Made by a program: the position numbers and the translations under genes. Under the pieces are notes generated by a model, which saw only the letters and a list, made by a program, of their open reading frames with translations, was not told the origin of the DNA and made no database searches. This document shows positions 57,728 through 59,067 of a DNA stretch of 64,000 nucleotides, one piece after another (the stretch's first letter is position 1; each line of letters starts with the position of its first letter). Source of the DNA: an uncultured Alistipes sp. (GTDB lineage: Bacteria; Bacteroidota; Bacteroidia; Bacteroidales; Rikenellaceae). The stretch is taken from positions 35,609 through 99,608 of the forward strand of contig CANQIF010000010.1 of assembly GCA_947623965.1 (NCBI GenBank), given 5' to 3'.

Positions 57728-58291
57728 TTATTTAATTCTGTAAATCAATGATATGCCGCAACGCGTAACGCCGAAATAATTTTTGCGCGACGTATCGAAG
57801 CGAGCCCCGTTTTTCGTATTGTAGTAGGTATTGTATCGGGTGTAGATGTAACCCGCACCTATGTTGAACTCCATCCCCCAATGGTCGGTGAACTTGAGCG
57901 AGTATCCGTAATCGATGCCCGCGCCGTACATTCCGTCGGCATCCTGATAGCGGTACTTTTTGTCGACAGCGATATTGAACTGACCGGCAATCAGATGCAC
58001 GCCGAAAAAGTGGCCGGTCATCGAGGGTTCCAACCGGTAGCGCACCGACGGCGAGACGGTCAGCGTACGGAAACGATAGTTTCGCGCGACGGTCACCGAC
58101 ATATAATACACAGGTATATCGACCGACCAGTGATCCGCAAAACGGTACTCGACGGCGATATTGGGCACAACCAACGCCCAGAAAGGTATGTTCGTCTTGA
58201 TATTCCAGCGATCCGCCTTCCAAGCGGAACCGCGCGACGAAGCAGTATCGGCAACGCTGTCGACCGCTGTTTCCGAATTCCTTCCCTTCAA
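57728..58291 (-). CDS. DUF3575-family outer-membrane protein, C-terminal part (reading frame stays open upstream to the poly-C tract at 58604)
   Basis: WNIKTNIPFWALVVPNIAVEYRFADHWSVDIPVYYMSVTVARNYRFRTLTVSPSVRYRLEPSMTGHFFGVHLIAGQFN...; upstream in-frame extension reads APDPPRHGKLAENQDFIAISAESVDPVDD... Confidence 0.8.
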   Translation of the reverse strand: MKGRNSETAVDSVADTASSRGSAWKADRWNIKTNIPFWALVVPNIAVEYRFADHWSVDIPVYYMSVTVARNYRFRTLTVSPSVRYRLEPSMTGHFFGVHLIAGQFNIAVDKKYRYQDADGMYGAGIDYGYSLKFTDHWGMEFNIGAGYIYTRYNTYYNTKNGARFDTSRKNYFGVTRCGISLIYRIK

Positions 58292-58581
58292 AGAGACCGA
58301 GGCGTCGATCGGGGAATTTTCGGAAATTGCCGAAGTTACTGCAACGTTTTCGGTGGCCTCAGCCGCCGCGCGACCGTCATCCGAAGCGGCCGACGCACCG
58401 ACGGCCGCAGTCGTGTTACAGGTTTTGCGGCCTTTCGTATCGCCCGTCGGTTCAGTGATGTCGGTAAGGTCGGCAGGTACTTGTTTCGCTTCGTTATCGG
58501 ACGCTTCGGCCGAGACAGTCGTCGTATCGTCAACGGGATCGACGGATTCGGCTGAAATTGCGATAAAATCTTGATTTTCAG

Positions 58582-59067
58582 CTAATTTTCCATGGCGGGG
58601 GGGGTCGGGAGCATCGCGATCAATTGCATTGTCGTCACCACATCTTTGTCTCCGTTGTAGGGGACAGCGTGGTTATAGGTGCAGTAGTTATCCTCCCTGA
58701 GCCCGTGATTGGTAATATAGTAGGATTTGACCTGGTTGCTGCGATTGCTCGCCATAGCCATATTCGAATACTCCGAAACGAACGAAGAGCAATATCCGTG
58801 AATGGCCAGATACATATCGCCTCTCTTCAGGGCTTCGCGATTCCGATCTATCATTTCGGCTGCCCTGCGTATGACATCTTCGTTTCCCCCGAAGTGCATA
58901 AAGAACATATTCGTGCGATTTTTGAAGCGGAAAATGAAAACGGAGTCCTCGCGAACGACGGCGGTCGAATCCGCCCGTTCGTTTTCATTCACAGAGGAGG
59001 CGTACGCTTCAGGCAAGAAAAGCGCTGCGGCGAAAACGGCAGATAATATCGTAAAGAGCTTACGCAC
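58582..59067 (-). CDS. OmpA-like N-terminal part of the DUF3575 protein (GTG start; truncated by frame at the poly-C tract)
   Basis: VRKLFTILSAVFAAALFLPEAYA signal peptide; FRFKNRTNMFFMHFGGNEDVIRRAAEMIDRNREALKRGDMYLAIHGYCSSFVSEYSNMAMASNRSNQVKSYYITNHGL...; ends ...MLPTPPAMEN* just after C8. Confidence 0.8.
   Translation of the reverse strand: MRKLFTILSAVFAAALFLPEAYASSVNENERADSTAVVREDSVFIFRFKNRTNMFFMHFGGNEDVIRRAAEMIDRNREALKRGDMYLAIHGYCSSFVSEYSNMAMASNRSNQVKSYYITNHGLREDNYCTYNHAVPYNGDKDVVTTMQLIAMLPTPPAMEN
58597..58604 (-). repeat. Homopolymeric C8 tract (G8 on plus) at the junction of the two frames; candidate phase-variation tract
   Basis: CATGGC-GGGGGGGG-TCGGG; adding one C restores a single ORF 59067->57728. 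Confidence 0.8.

What the first reader, a model, noticed from the sequence alone, without database searches (positions are those of the whole stretch)
57728..59067. Poly-C tract splits an OmpA-like/DUF3575 fimbrial-operon gene: candidate phase-variable switch
On the minus strand, the OmpA-like half (GTG at 59067) reads ...MQLIAMLPTPPAMEN* with codons ACC CCC CCC GCC ATG GAA AAT TAG. The C8 run sits five codons before the stop. The DUF3575 half is in another frame, and that frame is open right back to the same tract (...APDPPRHGKLAENQDFIAISAESVDPVDD... into MKGRNSETAVDS...). With nine Cs the codons become ACC CCC CCC CGC CAT GGA AAA TTA GCT GAA, which joins both halves into one ~447-residue protein. 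That is the domain order I expect for Bacteroidales DUF3575 proteins (signal peptide, OmpA-like, linker, DUF3575). The gene is first in an operon with an Mfa2-like lipoprotein and two fimbrillin-like lipoproteins. Slipped-strand mispairing could therefore toggle an outer-membrane component of a surface appendage. The alternative is a homopolymer sequencing error or a fixed frameshift.
Basis: partly seen in the sequence, partly recalled or inferred. Interest (0 to 1): 0.85.

Follow-up and report, generated by a model that had tools for sequence, protein, structure and literature searches.

The report
Poly-C switch in Alistipes surface gene
A gut bacterium (Alistipes) carries a run of identical DNA letters in the middle of a cell-surface gene, and in a sister species public sequences hold the same gene both intact and cut short because that run is one letter longer, which is what a random on/off switch for a surface protein would look like.

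Summary
A C8 run (58597-58604, minus strand) ends an OmpA-like ORF five codons later, and the DUF3575 beta-barrel frame is open back to the run. The window is from an Alistipes genome.

Homologues are single fused proteins. In the closest held relative (G002) the operon is syntenic and the run is C9, in frame. The protein collection shows tract-length polymorphism in that relative: P0004 (460 aa, C9, fused) and P0067 (identical upstream, C10, stops at 167 aa). For the window's own species, several contigs carry only out-of-frame alleles (P0065, P0066), so C8 is no one-off assembly error; but no fused copy was found. The downstream half shows no decay.

The run sits just after the folded OmpA-like domain, so the short form should be a periplasmic domain without its outer-membrane barrel.

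Context found here: Alistipes genomes are unusually rich in exact C9 runs (75 in this genome; other Bacteroidales at most 24). Three other genes here are split at such runs: a sulfatase-family enzyme, a glycosyltransferase and a lipoprotein.

Most likely this is a slipped-strand phase-variable locus, possibly stuck OFF in this species. Reversible switching is not shown. 'Fimbrial' is unproven: downstream proteins are DUF6562.

The parts
58597..58604 (-). Poly-C run of eight, preceded by A, five codons before the stop of the OmpA-like ORF; C9 in frame at the same place in G002 and C10 in natural allele P0067
58582..59067 (-). First half: GTG start, signal-peptide-like N-terminus, OmpA-like domain (161 aa)
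   Evidence: same ending in P0065
57728..58596 (-). Second half in another frame: low-complexity linker and DUF3575 beta-barrel, open back to the run
   Evidence: no excess change relative to P0003
59104..59134 (-). Bacteroidetes-type promoter candidate: TTG, 20 nt, TATCTTTG (fits TAnnTTTG)
   Evidence: read by eye; consensus from general knowledge; not tested
56732..57715 (-). Second gene of the operon, lipoprotein-like, DUF6562 (Mfa2 only sub-threshold)
   Evidence: PF20200 217.9 bits; syntenic in G002
53807..56689 (-). Third gene, 960 aa, N-terminal DUF6562
   Evidence: syntenic in G002
51230..53689 (-). Fourth gene, 819 aa, N-terminal DUF6562
   Evidence: syntenic in G002

Best explanation
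The C run is a slipped-strand contingency site inside a surface gene of an Alistipes operon. Its length changes by one during replication. When the run keeps both halves in one frame (C9 in the sister species) the cell makes a fused protein: a periplasmic OmpA-like, probably peptidoglycan-binding domain, a disordered linker and an outer-membrane barrel (DUF3575). At other lengths (C8 here, C10 in the sister species) translation stops just after the OmpA-like domain; a short periplasmic protein without its membrane anchor is left, and about 850 bases before the next gene stay untranslated, so downstream genes may also be turned down by polarity. Shown: the split, the conserved run, natural in-frame and out-of-frame alleles in the sister species, out-of-frame alleles on several contigs of this species. 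Inferred: that changes are reversible at high rate, that they are selected, and the effect on the surface.
For: Fused homologues, and syntenic operon with C9 in frame in G002. Same-species alleles P0004 (C9, fused) and P0067 (C10, truncated) identical up to the run. C8 ending repeated on several contigs in P0065; another out-of-frame allele in P0066. Run and T-P-P kept although fourfold sites are saturated. No faster change after the run than in the in-frame relative P0003: 10 against 14. Run lies at the domain boundary. Genome-wide C-run lengths peak at nine and spread over 8-10; three other genes (sulfatase family, GT2, lipoprotein) are split at runs, and GT2 homologues in two other Alistipes genomes are split at a C9 run at another position.
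Against: No fused allele of the window's own species was found although the searches covered its length. P0068 shows a further frameshift in one allele, as expected of decay. In G202 all 14 sampled in-gene C9 runs read through in frame, so a run in a gene need not be a switch. All alleles are from assemblies; no read-level or clonal data; protein clusters are known by their representatives only.
Confidence: 0.7

Rival explanations
1. Fixed frameshift: in the window's species the gene was inactivated by slippage at the run and is a young pseudogene, while the sister species still has the working gene.
For: Only out-of-frame alleles in this species on several contigs, and one allele with an additional frameshift; no fused copy.
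Against: The sister species has both states; the downstream half keeps its frame and has no excess of changes. A recent loss would look the same.
Confidence: 0.2
2. Recoding: a share of ribosomes or RNA polymerases slips on the C run and makes the fused protein from the C8 gene, so there is no ON/OFF switch at the DNA level.
For: The downstream frame is kept although out of frame; long homopolymers can be slippery (general knowledge).
Against: The sister species shows DNA alleles of different length and distant fused homologues have no run, so recoding is not needed. No stimulatory element was looked for.
Confidence: 0.06
3. Sequencing or assembly error: the true run is C9 and the gene is intact.
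For: A homopolymer in a draft genome of unknown sequencing method.
Against: The same ending occurs in P0065 with substitutions upstream on several contigs, and a different out-of-frame allele in P0066; most other in-gene C9 runs in this genome are in frame.
Confidence: 0.04

Closest known systems
Simple-sequence-repeat contingency loci with homopolymer tracts (Campylobacter, Neisseria, Helicobacter; review PMC11868660)
   Same: Homopolymer of about nine inside a surface-related gene, frame set by run length, alleles of both frames in nature; other run-bearing genes are glycosyltransferases, a sulfatase-family protein and a lipoprotein.
   Different: Order Bacteroidales; run in mid gene at a domain boundary; reversible switching not shown; most C9 runs of the genome are intergenic.
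Invertible-promoter phase variation of Bacteroides surface loci (e.g. PMC3090145)
   Same: On/off control of surface operons in Bacteroidales.
   Different: No inversion signature found near this operon; the change is a run length in the coding frame.
OmpA-DUF3575 fused outer-membrane proteins of Bacteroidales
   Same: Domain order OmpA-like, linker, DUF3575 barrel in all close relatives; first gene of a lipoprotein operon.
   Different: Interrupted by an out-of-frame run here; accompanying proteins are DUF6562, not curated fimbrillin or Mfa2.

Membership tests
Simple-sequence-repeat contingency (phase-variable) locus | Hypermutable-length repeat inside the reading frame, with the gene intact on both sides | tested here: met
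   C8 between two open frames, fused in relatives
Simple-sequence-repeat contingency (phase-variable) locus | Repeat number differs among isolates and changes the frame | tested here: met
   Sister species: P0004 = C9 fused, P0067 = C10 truncated. Not met so far within the window's own species, where only out-of-frame alleles were seen
Simple-sequence-repeat contingency (phase-variable) locus | Reversible switching at high rate in clonal culture | not testable with these tools
   needs reads or colonies
Simple-sequence-repeat contingency (phase-variable) locus | Repeat longer than composition predicts | tested here: inconclusive
   Not in the window alone; genome-wide the length spectrum is non-decaying with a peak at nine
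OmpA-DUF3575 outer-membrane protein | Both Pfam domains over cut-off, one after the other | tested here: met
   model of P0004
OmpA-DUF3575 outer-membrane protein | Domains in one reading frame | tested here: not met
   split at the run in this genome
Mfa/Fim-type fimbrial operon | Mfa2/FimB anchor family (PF08842) | tested here: not met
   14.3 bits against cut-off 21.2
Mfa/Fim-type fimbrial operon | Fimbrillin family match in structural subunits | tested here: not met
   Pfam gives DUF6562 as the only match over cut-off, NCBIfam nothing over cut-off; a fold comparison was not made

The most novel reading that the evidence does not exclude
Alistipes carries a genus-specific population of exact C9 runs, held at nine by an unknown process; in one near-complete genome (G202) 94 of 100 lie on the leading strand and all 30 sampled follow A or T. 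Surface genes have recruited such runs as slipped-strand switches, so a gut Bacteroidales genus uses poly-C contingency loci as well as, or in place of, DNA inversion.
Probability: 0.45. Interest if true: 0.85.

Novelty: new variant of a known kind. Interest (0 to 1): 0.7.

Why it matters
Phase variation of Bacteroides in the papers consulted here is by DNA inversion. A poly-C switch in an Alistipes surface operon, with in-frame and out-of-frame alleles in public data, would add a second mechanism in an abundant gut genus, and it can be tested now from existing metagenome reads. Annotation pipelines also lose such genes: they appear as short OmpA proteins without a partner.

Tried and rejected
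Plasmid and viral collections gave no relative. No invertible-promoter signature: inverted repeats found are short and distant. Replication-strand polarity of C9 runs, strong in G202, is not seen in this genome (26 against 25 for A/T-preceded C9; leading strand inferred only from weak contig skew). For the second split gene (sulfatase family) no match in the genus at E <= 1e-80 beyond the own paralogue. Literature: nothing on poly-C phase variation in Alistipes in the held library; DUF3575 is in two papers only. P0069, a shortened relative of P0013, was looked at: no C run there, not explained.

Full report
WHAT IS THERE. On the minus strand an ORF starting at GTG 59067 encodes a signal-peptide-like N-terminus and an OmpA-like domain, and stops at 58582, five codons after a run of eight C at 58597-58604. 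A second frame is open from the run to 57728 and encodes a low-complexity linker and a DUF3575 barrel. Pfam supports both halves (OmpA 27.9 bits, cut-off 27.2; DUF3575 151.5 bits). A Bacteroidetes-type promoter candidate (TTG, 20 nt, TATCTTTG at 59104-59111) lies just upstream (by eye). Three co-directional genes follow, all with DUF6562.

RELATIVES ARE FUSED. Single open frames of 386-483 aa cover both halves in G002, G026, G050, G061, G102 and G251. In G002 the operon is syntenic and the run is C9, in frame. More distant fused relatives have no run there. Between this genome and G002 fourfold sites are saturated (12 of 40 and 33 of 82 the same), yet the run and the residues T-P-P are kept. 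P0003 (77% identical, 336 aa) also reads T-P-P-R in frame, but starts inside the OmpA domain, so whether its 5' end is complete is unknown.

NATURAL ALLELES. The protein collection gives the strongest evidence. P0004 (460 aa) is the fused protein of the G002-type species. P0067 (167 aa) is identical to it up to STPP and then ends PKNI. Reading G002's own flanks with run lengths 8 to 11 shows that P0004 fits C9 only and P0067 fits C10 only. One species therefore has both frames. For the window's species, P0065 (5 contigs, 20 member sequences) ends exactly as the window does, with substitutions upstream, and P0066 (3 contigs, 98% identical) has a different sequence after the run and also misses the barrel frame. 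A fused copy of this species would have been within the length range of the searches and was not found. P0068 has another frameshift in the OmpA half. Caution: clusters are at 90% identity and only representatives were read; sources are mostly assembled metagenomes.

CONSTRAINT. With P0004 as outgroup, changes unique to the window after the run number 10, against 14 unique to P0003. The barrel has not changed faster than in an in-frame relative. This fits a switch, or a recent loss.

WHERE THE RUN FALLS. The AlphaFold model of P0004 (34 sequences, mean pLDDT 71) shows an OmpA-like domain at 44-151, disorder at 158-294 and a barrel at 302-459. The OmpA-like part matches the A. baumannii OmpA-like domain (3td3). 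The run codes for residues just after the last strand of that domain. The short form should therefore be a nearly complete periplasmic domain without its membrane anchor (inference).

GENOME-WIDE CONTEXT. In this 2.47-Mb genome exact C-run counts over both strands are C7 51, C8 54, C9 75, C10 8, none longer. That is not a decay with length. Many Alistipes show a stronger excess of C9 over C7: 109 against 7 in G202, 72 against 2 in G054, 47 against 2 in G002; some do not, e.g. 0 against 26 in G200. Of 199 genomes across the order, none but G000 exceeds 24. Of 136 runs of eight or more examined here, 124 lie outside predicted genes, although about 76% of the window is coding by the same gene finder. 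Runs preceded by A or T peak at nine (about 15, 50 and 6 of length 8, 9 and 10); those preceded by G decay (38, 24, 2). The finding's run is of the first type.

OTHER GENES WITH RUNS. Twelve runs lie in predicted genes of this genome. Four genes are out of frame at the run: the present one; a sulfatase-family protein (C9) with a membrane-spanning half, whose paralogue is continuous; a GT2 glycosyltransferase (C9); and a lipoprotein-like gene broken just after its signal peptide (G8). In-frame ones include two further glycosyltransferase-like proteins, the sulfatase paralogue, a PAP2 phosphatase, an OstA-like protein, a UvrD helicase and a large lipoprotein-like protein. GT2 homologues in two other Alistipes genomes (G120, G253) are split at a C9 run at another position. 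This resembles the gene content of known contingency loci. As a counterweight, in G202 14 of 30 sampled C9 runs lie in genes and all 14 read through in frame, so a run in a gene need not be a switch.

MECHANISM. Slipped-strand mispairing at the run, changing the frame, is the simplest account (0.7). Shown: split, conserved run, alleles. Inferred: reversibility, rate, selection, polarity on downstream genes, role in a surface structure. Rivals: fixed OFF in this species (0.2), recoding (0.06), sequencing error (0.04).

KNOWN OR NEW. Homopolymer contingency loci are known elsewhere (review PMC11868660). Bacteroides phase variation in the papers read here is by inversion (PMC3090145, PMC11868660), with slippage mentioned in PMC3090145 as a possible mechanism at one B. 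fragilis locus. I found no report for Alistipes in the held library, which lacks most subscription journals. I file it as a new variant of a known kind.

Noticed in passing
G202:C5 (L202-L231): In a near-complete Alistipes genome exact C9 runs are polarised by replichore: 94 of 100 on the leading strand as judged by GC skew (Fisher p about 5e-21), and in 30 of 30 sampled the base before the run is A or T. Function unknown.
   Followed up: partly
Genus-wide: Alistipes genomes hold far more exact C9 runs (up to 175 in G076) than other Bacteroidales (at most 24 in the sample), with a dip at C7 in many species.
   Followed up: partly
L067 1008-3000 (G000:C1 near 34233): Sulfatase-family gene split at a C9 run between its membrane-spanning and catalytic halves; the paralogue at G000:C20 is continuous.
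   Followed up: partly
L133 near 1501 (G000:C17 near 40900); L197, L198: GT2 glycosyltransferase split at a C9 run; homologues in G120 and G253 are split at a C9 run at a different position.
   Followed up: partly
L154 near 1501 (G000:C1 near 272890): Lipoprotein-like gene broken by a G8 run just after the signal peptide, the remainder open in another frame.
   Followed up: partly
window 24300-24308 and 35942-35950: The other two nine-base C/G runs of the window are intergenic and have C on the same (minus) strand as the finding.
   Followed up: partly
window about 59160-60190, minus strand: Upstream of the operon the DNA reads by eye like remnants of a DUF1016/YhcG-like nuclease gene and restriction specificity-like peptides, apparently degraded.
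   Followed up: no
protein P0068: Allele of the window's species with a further frameshift inside the OmpA-like half.
   Followed up: no
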